Assembly: GCA_004519485.1 (NCBI GenBank)
Contig: CP038120.1
Coordinates: forward strand, 408,720 to 472,719
Origin: Nannochloropsis oceanica
Lineage: Eukaryota > Sar > Eustigmatophyceae > Eustigmatales > Monodopsidaceae
Direction: 5' to 3'
DNA: 64,000 nucleotides
The notes under the pieces are model-generated. The model was not told the origin of the DNA. It was given only the letters and a program-made list of their open reading frames with translations, and made no database searches. How positions within the stretch are numbered: position 1 is the first letter of the stretch; every line of letters begins with the position of its first letter. The position numbers and the translations under genes are program-made. Below are positions 2,104-46,400 of the stretch, piece by piece.

Positions 2104-4414
2104 TTAAAATCCACCCGCCCCGCCTTCCACCGGTTCACGGACCCTAGCCATCACACCCTCATCCTTTATTCCGTTGCTTCCATTCCCAACCTTCCCGCCC
2201 CCTCCTCCTTTTCCATGCTTCTCATGGTGCCATTGTGATGTGTGATACAACCAGGCCGCCCCCGGCTTAAACCCCATCTCCAGACGCGTCCCCACAATCG
2301 CCGTCAGGGCCCCGCCCTCCCTCTCGCCCTCCCTCCCGCCCTCCTCCAACACGTCCTGGCATAGATCATAGACACAAGCGTAGAGGGGAGAGGAGAGAAA
2401 GCGGGGCTGGGAGAGGAACAGGGACAGAGGCACCCACTCACAGACCGCGATCTCACGCGGACAGGGTTGAATGCTACGGGTGGAGTGAATGAGGGGTGGA
2501 GAGAGGGATAGATATAATAAATAACAGGGATATAATAAATAAAAATTCATTATGATACCTTCCCTCTTTACCTACACAGACAATCGCCGCGAGACCACAA
2601 AGAATAAATATCAAATTGACCGAGGGGTAAGCCTGTCCTCCCTCCCTCCCTCCCTCCTTCCCTCCCTCCCTCCCTTCCTACCTACCTGCTCCCCTCCTCC
2701 ACTTCGAGGCGTGCCACAAAGAACAAGTCACTCTTACCAAAGGCAAAGCCGTGAGCATGCCGAAAGGCCACCAGGCTCCGAAACCGCGCGTCTACCCCCG
2801 TCTCCTCCTTCACCTTTAGGATGGAAATGGAAAGGAAAGAGGAAGAGAAGGGAAGACGAATTGATGAGGCGAAAAGAGAAGTTTTTTTAAATTGTCTTCA
2901 TCCAAAGTAAGAGAGAAAGGTGAAGGCATGGAGAAGACACGGGAGGGAGGGAGGAAGGAAGGGAGAGAGCTGTAACCGTAGAGGGAGACGGAAAGCATGG
3001 AGGTAGCTAAAGAGGGAGGGAGAAAGAGAGGGAAGAAGGGAAGGCGTCTGCTTCCCACCTCACGTTCGGCGCCGGTGCCAATGTCCTCCCCCACGTCCAG
3101 CAAGCCCGTGGGCATCTAGAGAGGGAGGGAGGGAGGGACGGAGAGAGGGGGAGAGAGAGGGAGAGGGAGGGAGGGAGGGAGGGAGGGAGGAAGGAGATAC
3201 ACGGTGAAAATGACTTACTAAGACGTGATCGTCCACATCTTCATTAAGATTTACCTCGTCTGGACCTTCTCTTCTACTTCTACACAGACCCAATAACATT
3301 TCCCCCCTACTTTCTCCCTCCCTCCCTCGCTACCTCCCTCTCTACCTTCCAAACGCCCGTCCCCTTCAATGGCCCACTTTTCTCCTGCACGGCTAAAATG
3401 TACTTCCCACTCTTGTCGAGCACCAAGGCACCCACGCCCACCTGTGAGGTAGGGAGGGCGGGCGGATGGAAAGGTGAAATAAGACGAGAAAGGAGACGAC
3501 AAAAAGAGGGAGTCTCCCGAAAATGGGCAAGGAGGGAAGGAGAAAAAGCGGAGGGGGGGAGGGAGGGGAGAGGGAAAGAGGGAAGGAGTTCGTACCTAGA
3601 GCATGGGGAGGGGGGAGAGAGGGAGGGAGGGAGGGTAGTAGGGTCAGAGGGATGGAGGGGCTGAGGGATGGAGGAAAGTTCTCACCTGGTGGGTGGGCCC
3701 GGGCGGGAGTGTGCAAGGCGTATCGGTCGCCAGCCAGCGGGTCATCATCACGTACCCTCGCTCGGCGTGGTGGAATTCAAACCCCTGGGCAGCTGCCACA
3801 GGCACGTGGGAGGCGAGAGACAGGGGAACCTTGAGCCAAATGCCGCGTTTGTGCTCTGCTTTCCATGCTGAGGGGAGGAAGGGAGGAATGAAGGGGAGGG
3901 AAGAAAAAGCGAGAATTGGCGGGGCAGAAAGACGAAGAGGGGGAAGAGGAGCGAGGGAAAGGGGATGAAGAAGGGAGGTGTCTGCAGATTAAGCTATCGA
4001 TGGTAATTGTCGGACAAGAGGGAGCTTGATAACTCCCTCGCTGCAGGCAAAGACCCGATGCTCCTCCACATTCATTTAAAAGACCTTACCAGTTAGCGAC
4101 GCCTTCAACTGCCTGTCGAAGACACAAGGATCAGAGGGGAGTCCTTCAGTCTCAATAATAATGCCTTGATAATGGTCTGTCATGTGCGGCAAATGAAGGG
4201 GACTCGGTGGTAGGGTGGGAGGGGACGGAGGGGAAATCAGAGGAGGAGTGGGAGGGGGAGGCGACGACGACGACGACGAGGACATGAGGACTACAAGTCG
4301 AGGCAGGCTACTGCGGAGGGTGCCGTGGGAGGGACGGAACAGAAGGGGCCGGAGGGGCGGGAAGGCGAAGAGGAGGGGTAGCCGAAAGGCGGTTGTGGAA
4401 GAAAGCTGAAACAA
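2104..4414 (-). CDS. Nudix hydrolase, NUDT6 type
   Basis: Six exons (4414-4090, 3867-3686, 3441-3346, 3115-3059, 2813-2686, 2473-2104) join with intact phase to 385 codons. The spliced protein has the NUDT6-specific N-terminal domain (RGIWLKVP, then GFEFHHAERGYVMMTRWL) followed by VGVGALVLD and QEKSGPLKGTGVWKMPTG. A perfect Nudix box GX5EX7REVKEETGV is formed only by splicing exons 4 and 5. FAFGKSDLFFVARLE and CEWVPL follow as in NUDT6. Nudix enzymes hydrolyse nucleoside diphosphates linked to another moiety, using the box glutamates to bind Mg2+; the physiological substrate of NUDT6 proteins is not settled. The N-terminus is hydrophobic and Arg/Pro-rich, perhaps an organelle presequence. An upstream Met is possible. 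The gene is divergent from the sugar porter, 508 bp away. Confidence 0.92.
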
Positions 4415-4922: not shown

Positions 4923-7900
4923 ATGGCAACTGCATCTACAGCCTCAGGGCCGCCCAACAACGGCAACAGCAGCAACAGCAGCAGCAGCAGCAGTAGCAGC
5001 AGCAGTAGTAACAGGGGGGAAGACCAGGTATGTTTGAGAAATCTAGGCTGCAGAAATGATGCCAACAGCCTTTCTTTGAGTCCATTTTATGAACTCTGTC
5101 GCCAATTTATTTACACCCGGTGTCCCTCTCCTCCTATCAACCAACCCTGAACCCCCTCCCGAGCAGACTACCACTGTCTACCCCGTCAAGCGCTTCGTAT
5201 ATGTGATTGCCAACATCACCGCCTTATCCGGGCTGCTGTTTGGCTACGACATTGGTAAGAAGGGAAGGTGGAGGAAGATGCAGGAAGTCAAAGAAACAGA
5301 GGGGGACAGGCTAGAGCGAAATGGAAGGAAGGACGTGCAAAGATGACTGCACTCGTCCAAATTACGCCACACAGTATTATTCCTCTTTTCCTCCAACCCC
5401 CCTTTGTTTTGTTGCTCTCCTTTCCCTTCTTCCCTCCCTCCTTCATTGCCTCAATTAGGGGGCTCAGGCGGGACGTTTGAGATGGCTGGCTTTCGGAATC
5501 ATTTCAATTGGCCGGCTCTCGGCGACAAAAGCGACCCGGCGTGGGTGGCGAATCAGCAAGGTAGGAGGAAAGGAGGGAGGGAAAAAGAGCGGGAAGCATG
5601 CACAGAATTCATGGATCTTGCTCTCGGACAGCGTGAAGGATATTAAGTTAAGAATATGGCTGGGACCCCACACTTTTCCTGCCTCGCTTCCATCCAACCC
5701 TACCCTCTCCTACCCCTATCCCTTCCTCTCCCTCGCGATCGCGCACCTCTCGTTCTCCGAGTACAATGCTGACTCTCCCCTTCCCTCCGTTGCCGCAGGC
5801 TGGATCACGGCCATGTTTTCCCTTGGCTGCATTGTCGGATCCATGCCCTCTGGGGCTCTGACTGATTTCCTGGGTCGGAAAAAATGCATCATTCTTCTAT
5901 CCTTCATATTCTCCGTCGGCGCCATTATTCAATTAGTGCCCCGGGACTATGCGATGCTGCTTGCTGGCCGCTTCCTGTCGGGAATTGGTGCGTCTCTCTA
6001 CCCCTCCCTTCCTCCATCCCTTCCTCCCTCAACCCCTCCCTCGCGTCCTCCAGGTTTCTCTATCATCTGTCTATGTCTAGGTTGCTTTACTTCCCTCGCA
6101 TTGTGCCAGCATGCCTTCCTTCTCAACTTCAACTCTCACTGTCTTTATCGAAGCCAAAATATCACATGTGGTCGCACCTGACCCTCCCTCCTTCCTCCCT
6201 CCTCCTCCTCCTCCCTCTCTTTTGCCTCCTCCCTCTGCCCTAGGTGTGGGTGGTCTGTCCATGGCTGCCACGCTCTACCAATCCGAAACTGCGCCTTCCC
6301 AGGTAGACCTCCCTCTCTCCCTCCCTCCTCCCCCCCTTCCCTCCCTTCCTCCTTCAGTCCCTCGTGTCCGAATCACAAATACCTCGACCACCACCCATCC
6401 GCCGTCCCTCCCACCCTCTCTCCCACCCTCCCTCCCTCCCCGCAAAGGTCCGAGGTCTCGTCGTCTCCATCCAGCAGCTATCCATCACAGGAGGCATCCT
6501 CCTGGCAGGGGCCCTAAATGTGGGCCTGCAGCACTGGGAAGACGGCTGGCGGATCTCATACGGAGGGAAGGGGTTTTTCTCTATCCTCCTCATGTTCTTG
6601 ATGGTACCTATCAATTTTCGCTCCCTCCCTCTCTCTTTCCCTCCCTCCCTCCCTTCTTCCCTCCCTCCCTCCTTCCCTCCCTGCTGTGTTCGAATATAGC
6701 TATCCGGGTACCATAATGGTCAAGAAAGCTGCACATGCATCACACTTTTCCTGCAACTCCAATGCAATAGTAGTAGCCCTCCTGACCCCTCCCCCATCCC
6801 CTTCATCTACTAGCTTTTCCTGCCCGAGTCCCCGCGCTGGCTGGTCGCTCATGGCAAGAGCGAGGAAGCCAAGGCTGCACTGCTGCGCATCCGGCAGGAA
6901 GAAGAAGTAGAGGGAGAGCTTGCGGCCATTGAATCAGCAGTCGAGGTACGTCTGTCTTGATAAGGATGGTAACTTCATGAGTCTTTTTTGTGAGATCGAT
7001 ACTATCTCTGGAGCATCAACCTCTTGACATATCGAATGTTAATATGGGGCGTGTGTGTCCATCATTGCATATCTCGGGGGGGTAATTGTGGTTTTCGGGA
7101 GAGGTACGTCCTTCGTTCGCCTTGTACAAACCCTCTTCTCACAGCTTGCCCTACCCTCCCTCCCGCCCTATCTCCTCCGACAAGTCAGAAGCCTGTCTCG
7201 TTCCTCCTCTTATTCCTCCTCCCTCTTTCTCTTCCCTCCCTCCCTCCCCCTATACCGATTCGCCAGTCGGAAGCCCGTATGGAAAAAGGCGCGTGGAAGG
7301 ACCTTGTTGCCCCCGGCGAATACATGTGGTATCGGACCATGCTCGGCTTTGGCATCCAACTGCTGCAACAGTTTTCGGGAATCAATGCGGTACAGAAAAA
7401 GTCACAGAGACTGCCTTTCCCTTTTCTTCTTTTGTTTGATCGTGGGCGTGTCGGGGGGTCCCGGGTCGCACTTTCTTCCCTTGTTATAGACTTGGCGCCT
7501 TCTGTTAGGGTTGGGGTTTGTACAAACCCTCTTCTTGTCACATGAAAACAGAAGGGGGATACTTAAACAATAGATCAAAGAGCCGTCGTTCGTCATAGAG
7601 ATGGATGTGACTATGATTATTATCTGCACCTCAATTCTCCTTTTCTCCCACCCTACTCTCTCTGTTTGCGCAGGTGATGTATTTTGCACCGGTTATTTTC
7701 AAGAAATTTTTAGCCTCGAATATGGCCATCGTAGCGAACTTAGCAGTCGCCCTGGTCAACTATCTGAGCACGTTCTTGGCGCTTTACCTCGTGGATAAGG
7801 CGGGCAGGAGGGTGTTACTCGTGTTGGGGGGCTTGGGCATGGCTCTTTTTACGGGTATGGGGGTTAAAGGAAGAATGGAAAGGAGGAAAGGGAGCTTTTA

Positions 7901-11828: not shown

Positions 11829-12283
11829 GGTGCTCGATGCCTTAAGTGTGTGCTTGGTTGGCTGTATTGTACAAATTGTGGGAGTGCTGGGAAGGTCTTT
11901 GGTATGCAAAAGGTCGTCGCGTAATTTGTAAAGGCAGATTGGGCGCCAAGACGGCAAATGTCGTACAGCCTGTCCAAGCCCGCCATCAAAGCACATAATT
12001 TACTCACTTGCCCTCTCCCTTTCGCGACTTACAGGTAGTTCTACCATACCTCTCGCATGGCTCCTTCATTGTTACGCACCCCGCCTCCTCCGACGCCTCG
12101 TCGCGACGGCTTTCACCGGGTGCGTTTTAGCCTCCTCACTCCGCGCATTCTGCCTACAGTCTCACCCTCCATGTCTTGCTGCCCCTGTCCCGCCGTCTCT
12201 CCTCGCCCTTTCCTCTTGTGCCCTAATTTGTAATTTCTCACATTCATTTCGCTTTCTATCTTCCCATTTTCTGCTTTCACGCA
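11829..12283. promoter_or_regulatory. Divergent promoter region, NAA40 / menB
   Basis: 455 bp between divergent ATGs. It contains another ATG at 12057 that opens a short Pro/Arg-rich frame. That could be an upstream first exon of menB only if an intron from about 12120 to about 12297 were removed; the spliced length argues for the 12284 start instead. No TATA box is clear. Confidence 0.4.
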
Positions 12284-14476
12284 ATGAAAAAGACCTCTTC
12301 CGGCCCAGCGGCATGGCAAGATCGAAGCCAAGCCCTTGGGCTGACCGACGTCATTTATCGCGTCGCACCGCAAGAGGGTAATAACGCGAAAGAGAAAGGG
12401 AAAAGGGTGAAGAAGGAGCGGAGAGATAGCAACTAAGAAGGGGAAATGGGAACCACGAGCTCCAGCTTCCTCAACCTGTCATCCATCGCATTCATTCTTC
12501 CCTCCCTCCCTCCCTCCCTCCCTCGCTCCCTTCCTCCCCTCTCTTTCCTGGTTTCAGGTATCGCCAAGCTCAGCATTAACCGCCCGTCAGTTAGAAATGC
12601 GTTTCGTCCCACTACCATTCGGGAGCTCAAGCGCTGCGTGGCTTTGGCCCAGGATGACTTGCAAGTGGGCGTTATCATACTGACTGGTAGGCAGGGAGGG
12701 AGGGAGGGAGGGAGGGAGGGAGGGAGGGGGTGGCTGCAAAGATCCATCTCTGAAATTTAAGATGGCTGTCTATTTATTCTTAGTCGTAATTGTAATCATT
12801 ATTTGGGTCTTAGCATCGATTTTAACCTCTACCTTAGTCTCAACTTTACATCTTGCCCTTCCTACTACTATTTTCCTTCTCGCACAGGGGAAGGCGACGA
12901 GGCCTTCTGTTCCGGCGGCGATCAAAGTGTGCGGGGAGAGGGGGGGTACGACGATGGGAGCGAGGAGGCACCGAGGCTTACGGTGTTGGATTTGCAGGTA
13001 GAGAGGGAGGGAGGAAGAGAGGAAGGGAGGGAGAGAAGGAGGGAAAAGGAATGGCACCAGGCTATGTCCGGGCATCTTATCAAGACTCCGCCCTCTATCC
13101 TTTTCTCTCTCCCTCCTTCCCTCCCTCCCTCAGGTGCAAATGCGGCGGTGTCCTAAGCCTGTGGTTGCCATGGTGGCTGGGTATGCCATTGGGGGCGGGC
13201 ACATTTTGCACATGTTGTGCGATTTGACGATAAGCGCCGACAACGCCGTCTTTGGACAGACAGGGCCTCGGGTTGGCAGGTGGGGTGGACGAGTGGATGG
13301 TTGAATGGGTGGGGGTGTGTGGGTAGGTGGGCAGGTGGATGGGAGGTATGCGCGGTAGATGGCGATGTTTTCTTCCTTTTCCTCCCTCCCTCGTTCCCTC
13401 CTTCCCTCCTTTCCTCCTTCCCTGCCTGCTCATCTCCTTCTCTGCCCTCACACCTCCCCCATGCCATGCCTCTAAAATTCTCACGTGTCATTTTCCCCCT
13501 TCCTCTTTCCTTTCTTGTCCATTCCTCTTTTCCTCCCTCCCCCCTCCTCAAGTTTCGATGCAGGCTACGGCAGCAGCCATATGGCCCGCCTGGTGGGACA
13601 GAAAAAAGCCCGCGAAATTTGGTTTCTGTGTCGGTTTTATTCAGCGCAAGAGGCGCTTGAGATGGGGGTAAGGAGGCAGAGAGAGAGAAAGGGAAGAAGG
13701 GAGGGGAAGCGTCTTTCTTGTTCCATTTGTGAGTGGTGACCACCATCGCCCCCCTGACTTTACCCTCCCTCCCTCCCTCCCTGCCTGCCTCCCCCTCCTC
13801 CCTCCCTCCCTCCCTCCCTCCCTCCCTCCCTCCCTCCCTCCCTCCCTCCCTCCCTCCCTCCCTCCCTCCCTAGCTGGTAAATACCGTCGTGCCCTTGGCG
13901 TCCCTGGAGGGCGAGACGCTCAAGTGGTGCCGGCGGATAATGGAGAATTCCCCCACGGCCATCGCATGCTGCAAGGCTGCACTCAACGCGGATGAGGACG
14001 GAGCGGCGGGGTAAGGAGGGAAGGAAGGAAGAAGGGAAGGAAGGAAAGGAGGATAAGCGACTCTCTCACTCTATTTAAGTCTTGTTACTCACACCCCCGT
14101 ACTCACACACCCACTCACCTCCCTTTAACCCCACACCTATAACCCTCGGGGATAAGCGATTTTCTCACTCCATTTAAGTCTCCCCCTCTCACCCTCCCCC
14201 TCTTCCATCTATCTGCCGGTGGTGACAAGGCGGGCCGCCGTCCTCCTCTTCCTTTCATCCCTCCGCGATAGTCGAACCTCCCTCCTCAAACCCACACCTA
14301 ACCCTCAGTCCCCCCCCACACCCTCCCACTCATTTTCCCCCTCACACAGCATCATGGAGCTGGCGGGCAATGCCACGCGGTTATTTTATTTGAGCGAGGA
14401 AGGAAAAGAGGGTCGCAACGCGTTTTTGCAGAAACGGAAGCCCGCCTTTCGATCCTTGCCCACCTCGAAGCTGTGA
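12284..14476 (+). CDS. menB: 1,4-dihydroxy-2-naphthoyl-CoA synthase (MenB), peroxisomal
   Basis: Seven exons (12284-12377, 12558-12686, 12888-12997, 13134-13279, 13553-13667, 13874-14010, 14350-14476) join in phase to 285 residues, the length of E. coli MenB. The enzyme cyclises o-succinylbenzoyl-CoA in phylloquinone/menaquinone synthesis. Visible motifs: [12 protein letters not shown], the CSGGDQ oxyanion segment, [25 protein letters not shown] with the Gln-Thr-Gly of bicarbonate-dependent type I enzymes, GLVNTVVP, and [10 protein letters not shown]. The last three residues are SKL, a canonical PTS1, so the protein should enter peroxisomes, as plant naphthoate synthase does by another signal. 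No plastid presequence is seen. Five of the six introns carry GGGA and/or CCCT tracts at their ends. Confidence 0.95.
13795..13872 (+). repeat. (CCCT)n intronic tract in menB
   Basis: The longest clean CCCT tract in the window, ending directly at the TAG acceptor of menB exon 6. The same intron opens with GTAAGGAGGCAGAGAG, so its ends are partly complementary. Confidence 0.95.
14051..14183 (+). repeat. 100-bp spaced duplication in the last menB intron
   Basis: GATAAGCGACTCTCTCACTC and the following TATTTAAGTC recur at +100 bp (14151) with a few changes. The copies lie in the longest menB intron. Confidence 0.85.
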
Positions 14477-15098: not shown

Positions 15099-18000
15099 CT
15101 ACCTCTTCTTCCCTCCCGCCTTCCCCTTCCCCTTCCCCTTCCCCACCGCCGGGGCTTCCTTGCGCTTGAGCGCGGAGGAGGAGGAGGAGGTCGAGCCCGA
15201 CGGCTTGAAGAACGAATCCAGTCGTTTCTGCTGCATCGCACCGCGCGATGCCTGGAAGGAGGGAGAGAGGGAGGGAGGGAGGGAGGGAAAGGAGGGGTAG
15301 GGATGGGAAGGAGGGAGGGAAGGTGAGGTGAGTGAGAAAAAGCGACGGTGGTGCCAAGAGTCCGACGTCCGCCCTCCCTCCCTTCCTCCCTCCCTCCCTC
15401 CCTCCCTCCCTTTGACCTTAAGCTTGGCAATGCCTGACTTGACTCGGTCGGGGTTGAAGCCCAAATTGTCGATGAGAAACTCCTCTAGCCCGGCCTCGTT
15501 CGGCTCCTGAGAACCGAGGGAGGGAAGGAGGGAGGGAGGGAGGGAAGGGTGTGTGGCAGAGAGCGTTTGTCCCATGTGCGATGTTGGCGTTTTAATATCC
15601 ACTGAATTCCCTCCCTTCCTCCCTCCCTTCCTCCCTCCCTCCTCGCCTCCCTCCCTACAGTCCACTTGAAGCTCTGCTCTGCCGGGTCGTGAATCTCGGG
15701 GTGGGAGAAGAGAGTGCGGGCCATTACGTAGGCGGGTGTCTAGGGAGGGAGGGAGGGAGAGAGGGAGTGAGGGAGGAAAGGAAGAATGTGAGTTGTCAAT
15801 TGTGTTTGTGTGGAATAGACAGCAAATTCTTTCAAACTTCTCCCTCCCTCCCTCCATCCCTCCCTCCCTCCCTCCCTCCATCCCTTGCCTGGTCGACCCA
15901 TTCCCACTCCTCGCCTTCCTTCCCTTCCTCCCCCGCGTCCTCCCCCGCCGTGTCCTCAGCCGCGCCGTGGCTGCCCTCTTCCGCGCCCTCCACCAACACC
16001 TCCTCCTCGTTCTGCAGCAGGGGAAAAAAGTGAGGGAGGGGGGGAGGGAGGAAAAGAGGGAGGGTGGGCGAATGGTGTAATCGACAGTATCCTCTTACCC
16101 TCCCTCCCTCCCTCCCTCCCTCCCTCCCTCCCTCCCTCCCTCCCTCCCCCCTGACCTCGACCACGGCCTTCTCCGCCTCCTCCTGTCAGAGTACGTGCGT
16201 GTGGGTGTGGTGATGTCAATAGAGCAAATCGCTCTTCCGTCCTCTCTTGATAATCTTCATCCGCCCGCCCTCCCGCCCGCCCTCCCTCCCTCCCTACCTA
16301 CCTCCATCACCTCCCCCACTACAGTCTTTTCCTTCTCATCCGGCGCCGTCTCGCGGGCATTGACTGCCTCGGCCTCCTCCTCTCCCTCCCTCCCTCCCTC
16401 CTCTCCCGAAGCAGCAGTGGCAGCACCAGCGGCAGGCATCTCCTCCGTCGAGGACGAGGAGGAGAGAGGGAGGGAGGGCGGGAGGGAGGAAGAGGGGGAC
16501 GAGACAGCGCTTTTTTCCTTGCGCACTCGGACGCGAGGGAGCCATTCGGGAGGGATCTGGAACTTGTCCTGAAGGGTGGGAGGGAGGGAGGGAGGGAGGG
16601 AGGGAGGGAGGGAGGGAGGGAGGGAGGTGAAGCAAGAACATTAAGAGAGGGGCGACTTGGTTGTTCAAGATTGTCATGCGGAGGGAGGGAGAGAGGGAGG
16701 GAGAGAGGGAGGGAGGGAGGGAGGGCGTACCTTGGGCAGGTGCTTGAGGATGGTCTCAATATCGCCGTGTTTTTTAATGAGATTGAGGGCGGATTTGGGC
16801 CCAATACCGCGGATGGAACTGGTGTAGTCGCAGCCCATGAGAATGCAGAGGTCGATGAATTGGGAAGGAGTCAGCTGCAGGCCCTCCAACACCTGTTTCA
16901 GGAGGATGATTGAGTGAGTGGATGGATTGTCCCGCTGACTTATCCATCTCCTCCTTCTGCTGTTGTTATGGATGTGCTGTGCATGCGTTTGGATATTTGG
17001 GAGTGCAATGGACAAGGAAAGGTCTCTTTCGAACGCGGCGTTGCTTTCGTTCGGTCACAAAGAAAGAGGGAGGAGGGAGAGAGGGAGGAAGGGAGGGAGG
17101 GCACGCGCCTTCTTATAGTCGATTTCCTTGATGGGATTATCGCCGGCGCTGGTCATGTTTCTGAGGAGCCTCGGCCTGAGGGAGGGAGGGAGAGAGGGAG
17201 GGAGGGAGGGAGGGAGGGAGGGAAGGTGAGAACCCAGTTCTGAGGAGCGGAGGAAGGGAGGAAGGAAGGGAGGGAGGGAGGGAGGGAGGGAGGACGGGCA
17301 CGCACGTGGCGAATGTGAGGGTGTCGGTGTCTTCGGTGGCAACGGCGAAAACCTTGCTGATCTGGAAAGGGGAGGGAGGGAGGGAGGGAGGGAGGGAGGG
17401 AGGGAGGGAGGGAGAAAGTAAGACAGCCATACGAATTTCACAGGGAAGGAGGCAGGGCTTGAAGGAGGGCTTGAGGGAGGGCTTGAGGGAGCGCTTGCTT
17501 GCCTTGGCGAGCCCCGCGCACTGGGCCTCGGCCTCGCAGGGAGCGTCGAGAAAAGGTACGCCCATCAGCTCCAGAAGACGTTTGCAGTCGGCGGATTCCT
17601 TGGGAAGGGAGGGAGGGAGGGAGGGAGGGAGGGAGGGAGGAAGAGGGTGAGACGGAAGGAGGGAGTAGGAGAAATGTCATGTTAAGACGGTCTGCATTTT
17701 AGTGACGCGCCAAAACCATGGTCCCTTTCTTCCCTCCCTCCTTCCCTTCCTCCCTCTTTTCCTCCCCGAATTTCAGACGTACCTTCTTCCCAGCGCGCAC
17801 CAGCCGCTTGTTCTGCCGGTCTTGCTCCTCGACGTTAGCCTCCTCCTGTGCCTATGGTCAGAGAGGGAGGGAGAAAGAGAGGAAGATAGGGTGAGCCTAT
17901 CTTGTGTCGGGCCTGAAGGAGGAATGGAGGGAAGGTGGGGGGGAGGGGGGGAGGGTAACGTGCCTTCTTGAGGTCGGCTTCGGCTTTTTCGCGCTTCTCG

Positions 18001-18920
18001 CGGCGCTTGTCCAATTCTCCTCCCTGTGAAAGGTAGGAAGGGAGGGAGTGAGTGAGTGAGTGAGTGAGTGAGGGAGGGAGAGATGAGAGTGACGGATGCA
18101 TGGGCTGAGGGAGGGAGGGAGGGAGGGAGGAAGGGGGGTACCTTCAGGGTAGGAGGCTTGCCGTCAAAGACGAATACTGGCTTGATGCCCGAGGAGAGCA
18201 TGCGGATGGTGCGGTTGAAGAGCCCTTGGATGTGGGATGTGACCTGAGGGATGGATGGAGGGAGGGAGGGAGGGAGGGAGGGTTCGGAGGAGGGAAGTTG
18301 AGCAGCCCAAATCTCACCAAATGGGAATGCGTGCGTGTATGTGTGTCACTCCATCCGCCTCTTATCTCATTTCTCACTTTTCCCGTCATTTGTGATCGAT
18401 ACCCGTCTCATTCCACCCCTTAACACGTACCTCTCCCGCCTCGTTGGTCAGCTGGGCGGCGGCCCCGCCGCTGTTGCCATGGCGGATGGCGATCTGGACG
18501 AGGGAGGGAGGCAAGGATGTTGCGTCAGCAGAATTATGACAGATGGAGCAGAAAGGCAGGAATGAATGATGGTGAAGATATGCTCGTGAAGAAGGGAAGG
18601 TGGACCGAGCGTAGTTCATTACACCCCAGTTCCCTTTCCTCTCCCTTCATTGTTTTTGTTCGCGCCTTCCTCTCTTCCCGTCTCCCTTCCCTCCTTCCGC
18701 ACCAGAAATTGATAGATGGCCATAGAGGCATCGACAGCAATGATGCGCCCGTTGTAGTGCTCGACCTGGGAAGAAGAGAGAGATGAGAAGGGTGGAAAGA
18801 GGAGAAGTGAGGGGAGCATGAGGCAGGTGGAAAGTAAGAGGCTGATTTGCTTACCTTGTGCTCCTTAATAGCATCGGGAGCCTCGTCTGCTATGAGCTTT
18901 GTCAAGCCTTTAATTCCCAT
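15099..18920 (-). CDS. FEN1: Flap endonuclease 1
   Basis: A heavily split gene (about 14 small exons) encoding FEN1, which removes 5' flaps during Okazaki-fragment maturation and base-excision repair. The ATG at 18920 gives [15 protein letters not shown]. Catalytic acidic residues are all present in order: [42 protein letters not shown] and [16 protein letters not shown]. The C-terminus has [26 protein letters not shown], a canonical PCNA box QKRLDSFF and a basic Lys/Gly tail. Between PPEWLPR and [10 protein letters not shown] lies a long acidic and Ala/Ser-rich insert (about 15.9-16.5 kb, spread over several exons) that ordinary FEN1 lacks. Most introns are short and made largely of GGGA/CCCT repeat. 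It is divergent from the amidohydrolase (474 bp). Confidence 0.94.
16578..16627 (-). repeat. (CCCT)n intronic tract in FEN1 (GGGA on plus strand)
   Basis: About 12 units upstream of the acceptor of a FEN1 exon. In this intron the donor flank is also C-rich in the sense strand, so it is an exception to the complementary-ends pattern. Confidence 0.9.
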
Positions 18921-19394: not shown

Positions 19395-22048
19395 ATGGCG
19401 ACCTCCTCTCCCCCTCCACCTTCAACTGCTCCGACTACCGGCGTCGTCGATGCCTACACGCATTATGCACCCTTAGCCCTCACGAGTTACCTCCAGGATG
19501 AATGCAATGACGGGAAGCCCTTGGTATTTGCCAAGCTCTTTGATCGTAAGTAATTTCGGACGGGGAGACGAGGAGGGGAGGGGATGGGAGGGAAAGGGGA
19601 GAGTGGTTGGAAAGGATGAGGAGATGTGTCGGGGCCATAGTTGTGGCGTTTCTTCCTGCCAGTTTTTGGGTCATCCGTCGTGTCCTGTCCGATATTGGTA
19701 TTTTTCTATCTCGCGATGTACCACCCTGTTATCCCCGTATTTCCTCCCTTTGATCCGTCCTTTTTTTGCAGGTATCCCCCTTTTAACTGACATGGCTGCA
19801 CGACTTGCCTTCATGGACGCCCACCACATCGATACCCACGTCCTCGTACCTCTCCCCTGGTTGGAAATCGTTCCTGGCTGCCATAGTAGTAAAGAGAAGT
19901 AAAAAGGGAGGGAGGGGTAGAGAGGGAGGGAGAAGGGTTAGGGAGAGGAAAAGAGGAAAGGCATCATGAAATATAGGCGGTTGCCAACAACACACAGGCC
20001 TACTTAATCCTTCCCTCCCCCTCGTTCCCTCCCTCCCTCCTTTCCAGGGCACTTGAGGCCTGCAAGCGCGCCAACGTCGAAATGGCAGCCGTGGCCGACG
20101 CACATCCTACCCGGATTTTGGGCGTTGCCCTCCTCCCCACCGGGCACCTCAAGGAGAAAGAAGAGGGAGGGACGGAGGGAGAGAGCGAAAAAGGGAGGGA
20201 CATTTTGATGGAAGCATACACGCACGCGGTAGACGTGTGTGGGTTGGACGGGGTGGCACTCTTTGTAGTAAGTGGGCGCACCCCTCCCTCCTTCCCTCCT
20301 TCCTTCCCTCCCTCCCTCCCTCACTCCCTCTTTCCCTCCCTCCCTCTTTCTCTCCTTCAATTCCCTCACATTCTCGCGCCTAACCGTTCTTCCCTCCCTC
20401 TCTTTCCCCATTCCTAGGGCCCCCTCTCCGCCCCTCTCGACCACCCCGGCTTCGAGCCTCTGTGGAAGCAGTGCCAAGAGCAGGGCCTGCCTGTCTGGGT
20501 CCACCCCAACCGACCGCAGGTACTTACGGAGGGAGGGAGGGGGGGAGGCAGGGAGAGAATCGGATCGAGTCCAGTCAAAGAAAGTGATTCTTATTTTCCT
20601 CTCATGTCTACTCCTCCCTCCATCCCTCGCTCCCTCTCTCGCGGCCTCCCTCCCTTCCTAGTTCTATCCCGACTACGAGGCCTACAGGGGCAAGGGTGGA
20701 AGCCTCCACCAAATATGGAACACATTAGGTAAGGGAGGGAGGGAGGGAGAGAGGGAGGGAGGGACAGGAGAATGGATCGGAGTAATGCTCCCATCTGCTC
20801 ATGTCCCTCCCTCCCTCCCTCTCTCCCTCCCTCCCTTCTCTCCTCCCCTCCAGGCTGGGTTTACGACACGAGCGTGGCGATGGTCCACATGGTCATGGCC
20901 GGCGTCTTCCAACGCTACCCGGATTTGAAGGTAGGAAGGGAAGGAGGGAGGGAAGGAGGGAGAGAGGGAGGGGCTTCGAAAACACATTTGTCAGTATTGT
21001 TTCCCTCTCCCTCCCTCCCTCCCTCCCTCCTTTAGGTCGTGACCCATCACCACGGGGGCATGAGTCATATTTGTCATTACCCTCCCTCCCTCCCTCCCTC
21101 CTCCTCCCTCCCTCCCTCCCTCCCTCCCTCCCCTAGGTCGTAACCCTCCACCACGGGGGCATGAGTCATTTTTGTCACTACCATCTCTCCCTCCCTCCCT
21201 CCCTCCCTCCCTCCCTCCCTCCCTCCCTCCCTCCCTCCCTCCTACCCTCCCTCCTCAAGGTCGTGACCCACCACCACGGGGGCATGATTCCCTTCTTCAC
21301 AGACCGCTTCACCACCCAAAGCCAGAACTTCGACGACACAGAGAGCCTGACCCTGCTCCAGGACATGAGAAAATTCTACTGCGACACTGCCACCTTTGGC
21401 GTGGCCCCGCTCAACATTCGACAGGTGCCCCTCTATCCCTCCTTTCCTCTTTCCCTCCCTCCCCTCCTCTCCTCTTCCTCCCTTCTTCCTCCTCCTACTA
21501 TTTTAAAAAATCTTTTTCATTTTTCTCCCACTCACCCTCCCTCCCTTCGCCCCTCCCTCCCTCCCTCCCCCAGGCCCTCGAGTTTTTCGAGCCCGGTCGT
21601 GTCTTGTTCGGGACTGACACTCCTATGGACATGGCAGCCCCCGGGTCTTTCATCAAGGCGAGCAAGACGGGAGTGCTGAAGAGTGGTAAAAAGGGAGGGA
21701 GGGGGGGAGGGAGGGAGGGAGGGAGGGGAAAGTGTGGAAAAATCACCAATAAGGTTCCTGTCTAAACGTCTCCACAACAAGGAGTCGAATCAAGGAAAAG
21801 CGGGAGGAAGGGAAGGAAGGAAGGAAGGAAGCAAGGAAGGAGACGCATGCTTAACCAGCCCCAACTACTCGATACATCCAACAGAGGTCTCGCCCGAGAT
21901 AATTAAAAAAGTTTGGAGTGAAAACTTCTGGACCATGATGCAGAAACGCGTGGAAAGCAAAGGAGGGATAGGGGGAGGGAAGGCAGGAGGGGGAAAGAAA
22001 AGAAAAGAAAGAGCTGATAGTGAGGAGGCAAGTTTGAGTCACCCATAA
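19395..22048 (+). CDS. Amidohydrolase-2 family protein (ACMSD-like)
   Basis: About nine exons; the first is 19395-19545 and the second 19772-19888. The product reads VVDAYTHYAP, a middle part with GLPVWVHPNRPQ, GWVYDTSVAMVHMVMAGVFQRYPDLK, VVTHHHGGMIPFFTDRF, FYCDTATFG, VLFGTDTPMDM and a basic tail. These are hallmarks of the TIM-barrel metal-dependent hydrolases/decarboxylases around aminocarboxymuconate-semialdehyde decarboxylase. The substrate is unknown. The usual HxH metal motif near the N-terminus reads Tyr-Thr-His, so the first His is replaced, while the later His (WVHP, HHHGG) and Asp (GTDTP) residues are kept. An exon start near 21.26 kb exists in three copies (see repeat). The acceptor of the full copy is AAG. 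The start is the first ATG after the divergent promoter. Confidence 0.8.
21036..21290 (+). repeat. Three copies of an acceptor plus exon-start segment
   Basis: Segments starting at 21036, 21137 and 21260 share a block coding VVTHHHGGM or a variant, each preceded by a CCCT tract and AG. Only the third runs on into the real exon. The first two also share ATGAGTCAT and TTTGTCA followed by new CCCT tracts, and lack an obvious donor. The second copy has one His changed to Leu. The unit lengths are about 101 and 123 bp. Confidence 0.9.
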
Positions 22049-28685: not shown

Positions 28686-31600
28686 TTATGCTGCTGCTGC
28701 TGCTGCCGCACCGCCTGTTACTTTCTCCTCCCTCCGTACCTCCCTCCCTCCCTCGCCATTGTCGTCGCCCTTGCCGGCGTGGTCGTGCCATTGGTAATCT
28801 CGAATGTAAGGGTCATCCCTGTCATATAGATAGAGGTCAACATTCATCGCCAGCGATCGAGGACACATTTCACGCCACTCTCCCTTCCATTTCCTCCCTC
28901 CCTCCCTCCCTCCCGGGCCCTGCATACCCGTGTCGGAGTGGGAGAAGATGTGGCAATGCGCGAGGGACTTGCCCGTGTAGTCATCTGCCCGCCAGCGGAT
29001 GGTCACGAATCCACCCCTGGGAGGGAGGGGGGGAGGGAGGGAGGGAGGGAGGGAGGGAAAGAAGGGAAGGAGGAATCAGTTTCCATTCGACGATCGGCAG
29101 CCACGACGACGTCGTTGACAAAACCCCTCCCTCCCTCCCTCCCTCCCTCCTTACCCTTGTGGGAGCAGGGGCAGTGAAATTGAGTCTCGCCAGTCGCCCA
29201 CCTGATAGTCCACGCCCTCTCCGTGGGACATGGCTACGATCTGAGGGAGGGAGAGAGGAAGGGAGGGAGGAAGGGAGGGAGGATGACCGTCTGACACACT
29301 CATTCCACCACCAAACGATGCTCTGCTTGCTCCCCTCCCTCCCTCCCTCCCTCCCGTCCTACCTCCCTTCCTCCGTGACCCTACTCTTTCCCTCCCCCCT
29401 CCCTCCCTCCCTCCCTCCTCCCCCCCCTACCTGGAAGTGATTGACGTGGATGTGAAACGGATGATTGACTTTACTCGGTGCCGTTGATCCTATATCGGTC
29501 TCCGACAGTCGCCATTCCTCCAGGGCGCCAAGAGGGATCCTGAGAGAAGGAGGGAGGGAGGGAGGGAGGGAGGGAGAGGGAGGGAATGAGGAAGAAACGA
29601 AGGAAGGAGTCAGGGGGAGGGAGGGAGGGAGGGAGGGGACGTACCGACGCTGGACTTCCGAGATGGGTAACGTTTGGCCGTTGACTCCGAAGTTGGAGTA
29701 GACGAGGCCATCGCCACGGCGACTCTACCAAGGGAGGGAGGGAGGGAGGGAGGGAGGGAGGGAGGGAGAATGAGGAGATGGAATACAAGAATGCTTCCTC
29801 TGTGTCGCTCGTATTGTCTGCTCACTCTCTTTCCCTCCCTCCCTCCCTCCCTCCCTCCCTCTATCTTTTCCTTCCTCCCTCTCTCCTTCCCTCCCTCCCT
29901 CCCCCCCTCCCTCCCTCCCTCCCTCCCTTCCTTGCTCACCTTCCCCGCCGTTGTGAAGACGTAGTCAAAGCGCTGCGCCACCTCATCCTCGAGCATTATG
30001 GTCTGCAAGTCCGCGAATTGAGGGTGGGTAGGAGGGAGGGGGGGAGGGAGGCCAAGCGAAGGAAGGGCATCTTTCTTCGCTGCTGCTGCTACTGCTGCTT
30101 CGTGGCCAGGTGGGTCTCCCTTCCCCTCCTCCTCCTCCTCCTCCTCCTCCTCCTCCTCCTCCTCCGCTTCCTCGGGTGTCTCCACGTGCAGAGTCATAAT
30201 TGTGCCTGTGTAGCAACAGCAGAGAGACAACGTGAGGATCAGATAACCCTTCCTCTTTCTCCCTCCCTCCCGCTCTCCCTCCCGCCCTCCCTACCTCTTC
30301 CCATCCTCCGCCCCTCCCTCCCTCCGTCCCTCCCTCCGTCCCTCCCTCCGTCCCTCCCTCCGTCTTCCCATCCTCCATCCCTCGCTTCTCCCCTCCCTTT
30401 CTCCCTCCCTGCCTGTCAGAACGTCCGTGCCCTCCCCTCCCTCCCTCCCTCCCTCGCTCTTTACCTTCGAACACATCGGTGCCCTCTCCCAAATATTGCG
30501 AGGACAAAAAGCCTTGCTTAGACGATGTGAGAGGGAAGCGACCGACCCAAGGACACCGGACCTGGGAGGGAGGGAGGGAGGGAGGGAGGAACGTGTCGAG
30601 ACGACGACAGAGGCGACGGGCGTGGGCGAGACGGAGGGAAAGATGCAAAATATATTACTACGAACAAGAATGATATTACCCGGGAGAAGAATGATATGAC
30701 CACCAAGGAGAATGATAAGACCTCCCAGTGATCCCTCCCTCCTTCACTCCCTCCCTTCCTCCCTACTAACCCGACCCGCTCATCCTTCATATTCCTCCCC
30801 TCTTTTTCTTTCCCTCCCTCCCTCCCTCCCTCCCTCCCTCCCTCCCTCCTCACCAACACGTCCTTCCTGCTCCCCACCACCAGCAGCACCGTGTGCTTCT
30901 CCCGCGGCGGCCCCGCGTACGATGCACCGTCCGCCGCCACCTCGTACATCTAAAAAGGGAAGGAGGGAGGGAGGGAGGGAGGGAGGGAGGGAGGGATGGG
31001 CTCGGGCATAAATACGAAGGACGGACACTATCGGCAGCGTGAGACCTTCCCCTGCGCAGGGTATCTACCCTCCCCTCCCTCCCTCCCCCCCCCCCTTTCA
31101 TACCTCGCACCCGGGCAGCTGGAGCAGCAGATAGTCGTTAATGCCCGCGTTAATGAGACGGAGACGCACGGCCTCCCCCGGGGCCAGCGTGAGCTTGGGT
31201 TCAAACTGACCGTTGACAAGGAAATAGTTGCCTAGGCAAGGAGGGAGGGAGGGAGGGAGGGAGGGGGGGAGGGAGGGAGGGAGGGAGGGAGGGAGTGGGA
31301 GGCGGAGAGCAGGTGAGCGAGGAGGAGGAAGGGAGGACGGGAGGGAGGGCGGGAGGGAGGGAGGGGTTACCCATACCAGGGGCGTCCTGGTATCGGTACG
31401 TGACCCGTGGACGCAAGAGGGAGTGGTAGACAGAATCTGCGGCATACAGGTAGTTCCTGAAGGTACCAGCCGCGACATTGACGTGCTGGAGCACGCAGAC
31501 GAGGTCGCGGGGGGAGGAGGGAGAGGGAAGGGTGGTGGAGTCGTCGATAAGGATGGCACCTGTAATAGGGAGGGAGACAGGGAGGGGGGCAGGGAGGGAG

Positions 31601-43455: not shown

Positions 43456-46400
43456 ATGGAGGATGGCAACAGCAGCATGACGATGATGGATGTGGTCGAC
43501 GCCAGCATACAACCACGGGACAGCCGCAACCAATCCTTGGCCACGGACCTCGTCCCTGGGGCCGTCCCCCGCGACGATGACGAAGAGGAGCCCACCCCCG
43601 TCAAACGCTTGGATGCAGCCTTCGAAGTCGTTACGAAGCAAAACCCTCTAGACGATGCCCCAGCATTGCAGGTAGCGTTACGTGTCCGGCCTTTGCTGCC
43701 TGGGTTGGCCGAAAAGTCGTGCATGCAGATTATTTCGGACCGGAAGGTGCATACCACCACCCCGCCAAGCTCAGGTGAGACAAGCGAGGAAAGGAGGAAT
43801 GGCGGGTCGAAAAGAGAGGAATCGATTGGAAACATTCATAACGAAGAAAAGGCGTCCAGACTTTCATTAATTGACTTGTTGACCCTCTTTAACCCCCTCC
43901 TGTCTCGCCCACAGTTTATTTCAAGATCACAGGGGGTCAAGTCAAGGAGTTCACCTTCCACAAGGTTTTCGGGCCGGAGAGCAGTCAGGAGGCACTCTAC
44001 ATCCAGACGACTCAGCCTCTGGTGGATGCATTGTGGTTGGGGAAGAGCGGGCTGCTGTTTGCATACGGTGTCACAAATGCAGGTAGGATATACACCCCTC
44101 CCTCTCTCCCTCCCTCCCTCCCTCCCTCGCTGCATGTCCAAGGCGTCCTTGTGCTCTCTGCGTATTCGCGTCCATTCAATGCACTGATCTCCAGTGTAGA
44201 GAGATGCCACCCTAGCGTCAATGCCTCTCTCATCAACGTGACCCCTACATCTCAACCATAGGGAAAACACACACCATCATGGGGAAGGAGGGAGAGAAGG
44301 AGGCAGGGGTCTTGCCGCGGGCGTTGAAAGATTTGTTTGCCCGAGTGGAGAGGGAAGAAGAGGGGAGGAGGATGGTTTTGGAGGAGGGGACGAAGGGTGG
44401 TGGTGGTGGAGGAGGGGCAGGGGAGGCGACGCCGACGCCGATGTGTTCGGTTGTGTGTTCCTACCTGGAAGTCTATAATGACCAAGTCTATGATTTGTTG
44501 GCGGGTGAGGAGCACGGGGAGGGAGGGAGTGAGACGGAGAGATGTTGGTTGTCTCGGTCTTCGTTGCGTGTCTTTTATGCTTATCTCTCTCTCCCTCTCC
44601 CCCCCCCCCTTCCTCCCTCCCTCCCTCCTTCCCTCCCTTCTTGCAGAGGATCCCGTGGGCGCTGGCAGCAAGCGGCCGGCACTCAAGCCGGCAGATAGAG
44701 GAGGAAAGGTCGAGGTGAAGGGCTTGTCCAAGCACACCATCAGAGATGTGACCTCGGGGGTAAGGAAGGAGGGAGGGAGGGAGGGAGGGAGGGAGGGAGG
44801 GAGGGAGGGAGGGAGGGGGTAGTGCGAAGGTAGATGGGAGTGGACCGCTGACCCTCTTTTCCTCCCCACTCCCCCCCCTCCTTCACACCCTCTAGCTCGC
44901 CCTGGTAAGGCAAGGCGCACAAAACCGTCGCATTGCGGCCACACGGCTCAACCTGGACTCCTCCCGCAGTCATTCCGTGTTCACCGTCGAGCTGCTGAGG
45001 GAGGGCGGGAGGGAGGGCGGGAGGGAGGGCGGGCAAGGACGGGAGGGAGGGACGTTGTGGATCGTTGATTTGGCCGGGTCGGAGAGAGGAGGTAGGACAG
45101 GGCACTGGGTAGACAGAAAGCTGCAGCGGGAAACGAGTGGGATAAACACGTCGTTAATGAAGCTCTGGCGGTGCCTGGACTCGCTCCGACGGAATCAGGC
45201 GGCTGCCACTGCTGCTGCTGCTGCTGCTGCAGCTGCTGCTGCGACGACTGCGTCCTCCTCGTCGTCCTCGGTGGTGCCGTACCGAGAGAGCAGGCTGACG
45301 CACTTGTTCATGAACCATTTGTCGGGGTCAAAGGTAGGGAGGACGGTGATGCTGTTGTGCGTCAACCCCAGCGAGCGGGATTACGACGAGACCATGCACG
45401 TCCTAGGGCAGGGGGCAGGGGTGCAGGAGGTCCGGGTAGTGAGGGATGGGGGGAGGGAGAGGCGGGCGGCCTTGCTCCTGGGAGGGGTGAGGGGGTGGGG
45501 GCCAGACGGGAGGAGGAAGGGGGGGAGGGAAGGAGGGGGGGGGGGGGAGGATATGATGGGAGGCGGCTGGTGAAGAGGAGAAAATCGGTGGGACTGGTGG
45601 GAGGAAGGGAGGGAGGGAGGAAGGAGGGCGGATTGAGCGCCTTTGGAGAGAGTGCTGCTGTTGCTGCTGCTGTTGGATCTGCGGTGGCTGGTGCCAAAAA
45701 GGAGAAGGGGAAGCAACTGGTTGATTTGCATGACAGAAAGGAGGAGAAGGGAGAGGAGGAGGAGGAGGAAGAGGACGAGGAAGAGGAAGAGGAGACGATG
45801 TCAGGAGTGGAGTCGGATGGGGCTATTGCGACCAAGACCGGCCGTCGCTCTCTGGCTGTGCGGGAGGAGATTCAGGAGTTGTTGGAGGAAAACCGAGCGC
45901 TGAGGGACACGATCGAAGCGCTCAAGGAGGCGTTGGCCCGGGCCGAGACGGAGATAAGGGAGGAGGTGGCGGGGGAGATGGCCTCGAGGATGGAGAAGCT
46001 AGAGGGGGAGTTGAGAAGGAGGAGAAGGAGGGAGGGGTTTGAGGAGGAGGAGGAGGACGGCGGGGGGAAGGGGGGAGGGAGGGCGGCAGAGAGGATACAC
46101 GTGGCGAGGCTGGAGGGGTGCGTGAGGGCATTGGAGAGGGAGAAGGAGGAAGGGGAGGAGGAGGTCAAGCGGCTGAGGGAGAGATATGAGGATGATATTC
46201 AGGAGCTCAAGACGAAGATACGGAAGATGGAGGAGGGGGAGGGAGGAGTGAGGGAGGAGCTGATGAAGTCGCAGGCGGAAGTAGCCGTGTGGAGGGTCAG
46301 GGCTGAGAAGGCAGAGGGGGGAGGGAATGGAGGAGGAGTGAAGGAGGGGAAAAAAGAGGAGTCGACGGTAGCCTCGGCACCCACACGGGCGACACGAGAA

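What the first reader, a model, noticed from the sequence alone, without database searches (positions are those of the whole stretch)
12998..13133. Introns whose two ends are complementary: (GGGA)n after the donor and (CCCT)n before the acceptor
In this menB intron the donor is followed by GAGAGGGAGGGAGG and the acceptor preceded by CCTCCTTCCCTCCCTCCCTC. The same layout, read in the sense of transcription, is seen in introns at 3345-3116 (minus), 5561-5798, 14011-14349, 20520-20661, 20729-20853, 20931-21035, 44505-44646, 44760-44895 and several FEN1 introns on the minus strand. GGGA pairs with UCCC, so the pre-mRNA could form a long stem with both splice sites at its base. Orientation follows the gene, not the DNA strand, which argues for a transcript-level role or for insertion and expansion tied to transcription. 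The G tract could instead make G-quadruplexes or R-loops. This is a candidate for an undescribed structural aid to splicing.
Basis: partly seen in the sequence, partly recalled or inferred. Interest (0 to 1): 0.85.

Follow-up and report, generated by a model that had tools for sequence, protein, structure and literature searches.

The report
Repeat tracts at algal intron ends
In this alga most introns start with a run of G-rich (or, in about a quarter, C-rich) repeats and end with a C-rich run, and the match between the two ends seems to be a by-product of two separate splicing signals rather than a purpose-built hairpin.

Summary
The genome (29.26 Mb, 32 contigs) fits Nannochloropsis oceanica. 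I called introns in 314 kb with my own strand-neutral gene finder; 214 introns of at least 120 nt were shared by three models. Donor sides are mostly G-rich, acceptor sides C-rich; the skew follows the gene strand and reverses inside the intron. Tracts are 11 times denser in introns than between genes.

Donor G and acceptor C amounts are uncorrelated (rho -0.04), and swapping acceptor ends leaves predicted pairing unchanged (28.7 against 28.8 pairs).

Acceptors are C-rich after both (130 of 145, 47 of 49). C...C introns cannot form such a stem; three of 18 introns checked against proteins are clearly of this kind.

Best reading: a C-rich polypyrimidine tract at the acceptor, plus a donor-proximal splicing enhancer that is either a G-run or a C-run, both grown into tandem repeats. 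G- and C-rich enhancers that replace one another are published for a human intron. Function is inferred; I had no RNA data.

The parts
12998..13133 (+). MenB intron of the finding: G-rich donor side (skew 1.00), C-rich acceptor side (-0.92)
   Evidence: splice junctions supported
12378..12557 (+). MenB intron, purine-rich donor side and CCCT tract at acceptor
   Evidence: models 35 and 34; junction; skew measured from 12380
12687..12887 (+). MenB intron with long (GGGA)n right after the donor; acceptor C-skewed without a long CCCT array
13280..13552 (+). MenB intron whose donor side has G-runs that are not GGGA repeats
13668..13873 (+). MenB intron, G-rich donor side, long (CCCT)n at acceptor
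14011..14349 (+). MenB intron, G-rich donor side, C-rich acceptor side
3116..3345 (-). intron of a NUDIX-like gene (gene name recalled from the sequence, not searched), G...C layout
15252..15416 (-). FEN1 intron, G...C layout
   Evidence: right-hand boundary agrees with tblastn ends at 15417
18766..18854 (-). FEN1 intron of the C...C kind (donor skew -0.71, acceptor -1.00), cannot form the proposed stem
   Evidence: junction supported by alignment to human FEN1 and tblastn
18027..18141 (-). FEN1 intron with C-rich donor side; the gene finder skipped the next exon here, acceptor boundary approximate
31232..31376 (-). multicopper oxidase intron of the C...C kind
   Evidence: spliced product 99% identical over 65% of its length to annotated N. 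oceanica protein P0121
31843..32013 (-). multicopper oxidase intron of the C...C kind
   Evidence: inside the stretch matched by P0121 (one gapped tblastn piece)
30950..31103 (-). multicopper oxidase intron of the G...C kind, neighbour of a C...C intron in the same gene
44505..44646 (+). kinesin-like gene intron (gene name recalled, not searched), G...C layout

Best explanation
The two tracts are two separate splicing signals. At the acceptor, the (CCCT)n run is a long, C-rich polypyrimidine tract read by the ordinary 3' splice site machinery (U2AF and perhaps poly-C-binding proteins). At the donor, the tract is an intronic splicing enhancer that helps U1 and early complex assembly; it can be a G-run or, in about a quarter of introns, a C-run, hardly ever both. 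Both signals were enlarged by tandem-repeat growth, which replication slippage supplies and selection tolerates or favours only next to splice sites. Complementarity of the ends follows automatically from having G at one end and C at the other; the hairpin probably forms at times but is not what keeps the tracts. Shown: composition, strand sense, either/or donor tract, independence of the two ends, concentration in introns. Inferred: enhancer function, the proteins, and the growth history.
For: Donor classes in 214 introns: 145 G, 49 C, 20 neither; the histogram of donor skew has two peaks. In +7..+56 of 204 introns (120-400 nt), runs of 8 nt or more give G 82, C 33, none 89, both 0 against 13.3 expected, p 6.6e-9; runs of 6 nt give both 3 against 27.0. 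Space is not the reason: 26 of the 82 hold two separate G runs and 12 of the 33 two C runs in the same 50 nt. Acceptor C-rich whatever the donor class: 130 of 145 and 47 of 49. Donor G and acceptor C amounts independent. The skew goes beyond the repeat: with all GGGA/CCCT runs of 6 nt or more masked, the donor side is still skewed +0.27 and the acceptor side -0.59, the middle -0.09. 352 of 442 runs lie where all three models call intron (4.71 per kb) against 0.42 per kb between genes. A U2AF large subunit-like gene and one U1 RNA gene are present. [quoted passage not shown] G-rich elements near the 5' splice site are said to help recruit U1 and to be bound by hnRNP F and H (PMC5778605, abstract and passages read).
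Against: No sign of compensation, which that human model predicts: donor G content is unrelated to donor-site score (rho 0.03 and 0.06) and to acceptor pyrimidine content (rho -0.07). The human motifs were studied upstream of weak polypyrimidine tracts, not specifically just after the donor, and the same passages cite a poly-C-binding protein that inhibits splicing in human alpha-globin. I have no RNA-seq, no mutants and no relative's DNA, so enhancer action is inferred. I did not search for hnRNP F/H or K homologues. C-class introns have more C-skewed acceptors than G-class introns (-0.84 against -0.72, p 0.003), so the ends are not perfectly independent. The repeat words count as non-coding in my gene models, which could pull exon edges towards tracts.
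Confidence: 0.5

Rival explanations
1. End-to-end stem: the GGGA tract pairs with the CCCT tract, brings donor and acceptor together and aids splicing.
For: 130 of 214 introns have G-rich donor and C-rich acceptor sides; 120 of 136 G-donor introns (120-400 nt) fold with at least 10 end-to-end pairs, median 31. A fish precedent for structure at intron boundaries is cited in a review (PMC7404189, passages).
Against: Amounts at the two ends are independent; swapping acceptor ends changes nothing (28.7 against 28.8 pairs, p 0.60); 47 of 214 introns are C...C, and only 8 of 49 C-donor introns show at least 10 end pairs; G tracts pair as well with other introns' acceptors, so pairing would not tell partners apart; pairing would hide the polypyrimidine tract. 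A generic stem, satisfied by any G tract with any C tract, is not excluded by the swap test.
Confidence: 0.15
2. Mostly mutational: seeds in the donor and polypyrimidine consensus grow by slippage into GGGA/CCCT arrays, tolerated in introns, with no enhancer role; orientation at the acceptor is filtered by the need for pyrimidines.
For: Same tetranucleotide unit at both ends; donor GGGA counts of neighbouring introns show no significant correlation (rho 0.09, p 0.24); 8.7% of the CCMP1779 genome is simple or low-complexity repeat (PMC3499364, passages); on C1 the listed places of one tract word crowd towards the contig ends (by eye).
Against: Intergenic DNA should then be as rich, but has 0.42 runs per kb against 4.71 in introns; skew persists with the arrays masked; intron middles have few runs, 0.51 G and 1.26 C per kb.
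Confidence: 0.22
3. DNA-level role: purine-pyrimidine tracts flanking exons shape nucleosomes, R-loops, G-quadruplexes or 6mA deposition, so donor orientation is free.
For: Donor tracts occur in both orientations; 49 of 136 G-class introns use a quadruplex in a quadruplex-aware fold; 6mA in N. oceanica prefers GAGG/AGGYV sites and is enriched just before donors (PMC10943562, abstract and passages).
Against: Donor orientation is biased about 3 to 1 and acceptor orientation nearly fixed, which a strand-blind role does not predict; tracts are rare in the 300 nt upstream of ATG (0.12 G and 0.08 C runs per kb).
Confidence: 0.08
4. Introner-like origin: introns were spread as elements with inverted-repeat ends.
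For: Ends of G...C introns resemble inverted repeats; an intron length peak near 210 bp, typical of introner elements, is reported in a pelagophyte (PMC9481584, passages).
Against: All-against-all comparison of 258 introns gave 282 non-self pairs but only 21 alignments of 60 nt or more; the ten longest, the only ones that I looked at, are 69.7-75.2% identical and open with tract sequence; the C...C kind has no inverted ends.
Confidence: 0.03

Closest known systems
Interchangeable G-rich and C-rich intronic splicing enhancers of short human introns with weak polypyrimidine tracts (PMC2481429, passages read)
   Same: Either G-runs or C-runs near a C-rich polypyrimidine tract in short introns; G is the stronger of the two there and the commoner here.
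   Different: Here the tract lies just after the donor, is often a tandem tetranucleotide, is almost always G or C and not both, is found in most introns, and shows no compensation for weak sites.
G-run enhancers near vertebrate 5' splice sites linked to U1 and hnRNP F/H (PMC5778605, abstract and passages; the primary papers were not read)
   Same: G-runs close to the donor: first run of 8 nt or more at a median of 11 nt in the 83 G-class introns that have one.
   Different: Often GGGA arrays, no relation to donor strength, and about a quarter of donors carry C-runs instead.
[quoted passage not shown] seen only as cited in PMC7404189, and in reference lists; paper not held; the repeat types are recalled)
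   Same: Complementary simple repeats at the two intron ends.
   Different: No dependence between ends; the acceptor tract is itself a polypyrimidine tract; a U2AF large subunit-like gene is present; C...C introns exist.
Introner elements of pelagophytes (PMC9481584, passages)
   Same: Short introns in stramenopile algae.
   Different: No copy family seen among the introns compared.

Membership tests
Structure-bridged introns with complementary repeat ends | Complementary tracts at both ends of the same intron | tested here: met
   130 of 214 introns G-rich donor and C-rich acceptor
Structure-bridged introns with complementary repeat ends | The two tracts occur together more than independently | tested here: not met
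   rho -0.04, p 0.56; Fisher p 0.16 to 0.90 at three thresholds; swap tests unchanged
Structure-bridged introns with complementary repeat ends | Structure stands in for a missing polypyrimidine tract/U2AF2 | tested here: not met
   acceptor side is itself pyrimidine (82% in G-class); U2AF large subunit-like gene, best exon 302.5 bits against a cut-off of 310.3; the same family also gave sub-cut-off matches in 2 of 14 control genomes
Structure-bridged introns with complementary repeat ends | Stem forms in cells and is needed for splicing | not testable with these tools
   needs probing and minigenes
G-run intronic splicing enhancers | G-runs enriched just downstream of the 5' splice site | tested here: met
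   G 0.40-0.44 at +7..+26; skew +0.27 left after masking GGGA/CCCT runs
G-run intronic splicing enhancers | Compensation for weak donor sites | tested here: not met
   rho 0.03 (GGGA-type count) and 0.06 (G count), n 214
G-run intronic splicing enhancers | Binding of U1 or hnRNP F/H | not testable with these tools
   no binding data; homologues of hnRNP F/H or K not searched
Interchangeable G/C-rich enhancers (Murray et al. 2008) | G-rich or C-rich element in the same place | tested here: met
   145 G, 49 C, 20 neither of 214; runs of 8 nt never together in 204
Interchangeable G/C-rich enhancers (Murray et al. 2008) | Compensation for weak polypyrimidine tract | tested here: not met
   donor G count against acceptor pyrimidine rho -0.07, p 0.29
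Introner elements | Copies of one sequence at many positions | tested here: not met
   258 introns all against all: 21 alignments of 60 nt or more, the ten longest 69.7-75.2% identical and tract-like; only 314 kb searched

The most novel reading that the evidence does not exclude
This genome uses a two-flavour donor code: most spliced exon edges carry one of two mutually exclusive tracts, G or C, read by two different RNA-binding systems that both bridge to the C-rich acceptor (G by RNA pairing or an hnRNP F/H-like protein, C by a poly-C-binding protein that also sits on the acceptor), so that short introns are defined by bridging in either mode.
Probability: 0.2. Interest if true: 0.75.

Novelty: new variant of a known kind. 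Interest (0 to 1): 0.55.

Why it matters
A genome of only 29 Mb in which most introns carry a repeat-like signal at each end makes two questions testable at scale: can splicing signals be built from microsatellites, and is end-to-end complementarity used or merely incidental? The two kinds of donor give a natural experiment with the stem possible in one group and not in the other, in an alga that can be transformed (title of PMC3499364). It also bears on gene prediction in Nannochloropsis, where repeat masking would hide intron ends, and on reading the 6mA enrichment at donors.

Tried and rejected
Pairing by selection between the two ends: rejected on independence and swap controls. Transcription-coupled strand bias: rejected because the skew reverses inside the intron. 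General microsatellite background: rejected as sole cause, intergenic density is 11 times lower. Introner copies: disfavoured. A fixed branch-point word was not found; the most position-peaked 5-mers, CCCTA and CCTAC with peak windows starting near -36 and -33, are only about 2.4-fold peaked. Compensation between tract and site strength, or a relation to intron length: none.

Weak points. My first gene finder missed MenB and was dropped. The second gives 4.5 to 5.2 introns per gene before taking the consensus, against 1.7 and (from 2.87 exons per gene) 1.9 published for this species (PMC3499364 and PMC6610115, passages), so many single-model calls must be wrong. 424 of 682 calls were dropped. 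Even the 258 kept include errors: in FEN1 exons were skipped, so the calls at 17846-18141 and 16893-17782 join a donor to a wrong acceptor. Restricting to introns of 120-250 nt gives the same answer. The first duplex run had 1238 of 45796 failed energies; one search repeats it with these set to zero. In the gene-model-free check the plain word GTAAG itself is only modestly enriched before G runs (20 against a mean of 13.2 for the other permutations). Genome-wide pattern counts count overlapping registers differently on the two strands; only the forward GTAAG counts look comparable (396 before a G run, 145 before a C run), and the backward control of the G pattern is as frequent (1056 and 583), so I do not lean on them. 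The classes use an arbitrary skew cut of 0.3; the GGG and CCC counts of run-free introns (53 G-class, 16 C-class) come from introns already sorted by skew, so they illustrate and do not test. Intron calls come from two of 32 contigs.

No paper describing these tracts turned up in the searches (open-licence PubMed Central papers; listings seen, 20 of 71 papers).

Full report
WHERE IT IS. The window is bases 408720-472719 of contig C22 in a genome of 29264788 bases and 32 contigs with TTAGGG repeats at contig ends. The best named match to its MenB is Nannochloropsis oceanica, and a published N. oceanica assembly has 29.3 Mb in 32 pseudochromosomes (PMC6610115; start of abstract, passages).

CHECK OF THE OBSERVATION. 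To see whether the layout is general I wrote a two-strand hidden-Markov gene finder with a non-coding model that treats both strands alike, and splice-site scores limited to -3..+6 at the donor and -4..+1 at the acceptor, so that tracts beyond these positions are not scored as signals. It was run in three versions on 314 kb: C22 398720-502719, C1 1-160000 and C1 700001-750000. Of 682 distinct intron calls, 258 were made by all three versions and 214 of these are at least 120 nt long. On the donor side G is 0.40-0.44 in the first 20 nt after +6 and falls to 0.26 at +57..+66. On the acceptor side C reaches 0.53 and purines fall to 0.15. Exons on either side are nearly flat (GC skew -0.08 to +0.17).

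A check that uses no gene model agrees. Upstream of 442 G-oriented runs of at least 12 nt (20 nt searched, purine-only words and words seen fewer than 12 times left out), the most enriched 6-mers are AGGTAG (29 seen, 2.7 expected) and CAGGTA (16, 1.7). Among permutations of GTAAG, AGGTA leads with 48 against a mean of about 13; GTAAG itself has 20. AGGTA also precedes C runs 11 times against a mean of 2.6. CAGG follows C runs 52 times and precedes them 13 times; it follows G runs 31 times. Density of runs is 4.71 per kb in sequence that all three models call intron, 0.42 per kb in sequence that all three leave intergenic, 0.14 in exons and 0.86 in mixed sequence; 352 of 442 runs are in introns.

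WHAT IT IS NOT. Donor GGGA count against acceptor CCCT count gives rho -0.04 (p 0.56, n 214); thresholds of 3, 6 and 10 give one-sided p of 0.90, 0.65 and 0.16. Duplex energy of each donor side with its own acceptor side averages -30.7 kcal/mol, with random partners -30.4 (1565 of 5000 permutations at least as strong) and with partners from the same gene -31.1 (3802 of 5000). The spread of the same-gene permutations is 0.55, so a true gain of about 1 kcal/mol should have shown. In full folds of 136 G-donor introns, replacing the last 64 nt by another intron's leaves 28.8 end-to-end pairs against 28.7 (p 0.60). Restricting to 164 introns of 120-250 nt, where skipped exons are less likely, gives rho -0.04. 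Transcription-tied strand bias is also a poor explanation, because the skew changes from positive to strongly negative inside one intron.

The donor side has two peaks: with a skew cut of 0.3 over +7..+46, 145 introns are G-rich, 49 C-rich and 20 neither (histogram). In 204 introns of 120-400 nt, runs of 8 nt or more of the two kinds in +7..+56 exclude each other: G 82, C 33, none 89, both 0, expected 13.3, p 6.6e-9. With runs of 6 nt there are 3 with both against 27.0 expected. Lack of room does not explain it: 26 introns hold two separate G runs and 12 hold two C runs in the same 50 nt. The acceptor is C-rich in 130 of 145 introns with G-rich donors, 47 of 49 with C-rich donors and 16 of 20 others. 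The C-donor introns hold few end-to-end pairs (8 of 49 with ten or more; mean fold energy -0.09 kcal/mol per nt against -0.36). Of 18 introns that I checked against proteins in MenB (6), the multicopper oxidase (8) and FEN1 (4), five have a C-skewed donor side. Three of them, 31232-31376, 31843-32013 and 18766-18854, are clear C...C introns with both ends supported; the other two are 32131-32246 (acceptor skew only -0.26) and 18027-18141 (acceptor end approximate). The support for the oxidase is an annotated protein of the species, not a transcript that I saw. In that list MenB 12380-12557 was entered with its left end two bases late; two of the models give 12378.

The skew is not only the repeat. 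With all GGGA/CCCT runs of 6 nt or more masked, the donor side is still skewed +0.27, the acceptor side -0.59 and the middle -0.09. 53 of 136 G-class introns have no GGGA run of 8 nt in the first 66 nt and carry 1.98 GGG per 40 nt, but these were chosen by skew, so the figure only illustrates.

HOW IT MOST LIKELY WORKS. The acceptor tract is most simply a long C-rich polypyrimidine tract. A U2AF large subunit-like gene is present (best exon 302.5 bits, just under the family cut-off of 310.3) and so is a U1 RNA gene (82 bits over a cut-off of 69.5). The donor tract behaves like an enhancer that may be G-rich or C-rich. That such motifs can replace one another, G fully and C partly, was shown in human LCAT intron 4, in a paper which also notes that many weak polypyrimidine tracts are C-rich and cites hnRNP K as acting on a C-rich motif near a 5' splice site (PMC2481429, passages). 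The roughly 3 to 1 preference for G here fits that order. What does not fit is the lack of compensation: donor G content is unrelated to donor score (rho 0.03 and 0.06) and acceptor pyrimidines (-0.07), and GGGA count to length (-0.07). The same passages also cite a poly-C-binding protein that inhibits splicing of a human intron. Tandem growth of such elements, allowed only next to splice sites, would explain why the arrays are intron-bound. The function, the proteins and the growth history are inferred.

The stem is not excluded as a generic effect. A G tract and a C tract in one short intron will tend to pair, and a population-wide preference for G at the donor could serve that. But it is not available to the C...C introns and leaves no trace of matching within introns, so I put it at 0.15. 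The mutational reading is at 0.22: donor GGGA counts of neighbouring introns show no significant correlation (rho 0.09, p 0.24), as chance seeds would give, but low density between genes speaks against mutation alone.

KNOWN OR NEW. The parts are known kinds: G-run enhancers, C-rich enhancers, polypyrimidine tracts, and structure-bridged introns in fish (the last seen only as cited). The N. oceanica genome papers, in the passages that I read, give intron numbers and repeat content but no such layout. I found no description of it in the listings. I rate it a new variant of a known kind.

LIMITS. Gene calls are computed, with known errors (FEN1 exons skipped). Intron calls come from two of 32 contigs. 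No RNA data, no relative's DNA and no mutants were at hand.

Noticed in passing
whole genome, C1 as example: GAGAGGGAGGGAGG occurs 1357 and 1407 times on the two strands; on C1 the listed places crowd in roughly the outer 200-250 kb at each end and are sparse in the middle (by eye), so tract length may follow chromosome position.
   Followed up: partly
C1:700001-750000 (L029-L033): In the 21 introns from the middle of C1 the acceptor CCCT count is low (4.7 against 13.4 and 17.1 elsewhere) and the donor GGGA count somewhat lower (7.5 against 10.3 and 10.8), while donor G content is about the same (0.40 against 0.38 and 0.37).
   Followed up: no
donor sites, genome-wide: The published 6mA motif AGGYV/GAGG of N. 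oceanica (PMC10943562) overlaps both the donor consensus AG|GTR and the GGGA tract, so the reported 6mA enrichment at donors could be partly a matter of motif content.
   Followed up: no
13553-13873: The annotated N. oceanica MenB protein P0002 lacks 25 residues that the short-contig protein P0001 has; it would use an internal GT in the exon, a misannotation or an alternative donor.
   Followed up: partly
12057-12310: P0001 shows a further first MenB exon (MAPSLLRTPPPPTPRRDGFHR) and so an extra first intron that ends near 12310; by eye its acceptor has no CCCT array. None of my three models has this intron as such.
   Followed up: partly
300 nt downstream of stop codons: Sense-strand GC skew +0.17 and G-runs 0.66 per kb against C-runs 0.20 after stops, skew -0.12 before ATG: a weaker strand asymmetry outside introns.
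   Followed up: no
acceptor tracts of neighbouring introns: Acceptor CCCT counts correlate between neighbouring introns (rho 0.28, p 0.0004) while donor GGGA counts do not (0.09).
   Followed up: no
L034 (C18:643491-643661 and upstream): Single U1 snRNA gene whose 5' end reads ATACTTACCTG; about 1 kb upstream on the locus lie two near-identical selenocysteine tRNA genes (378-464 and 552-638, minus strand).
   Followed up: partly
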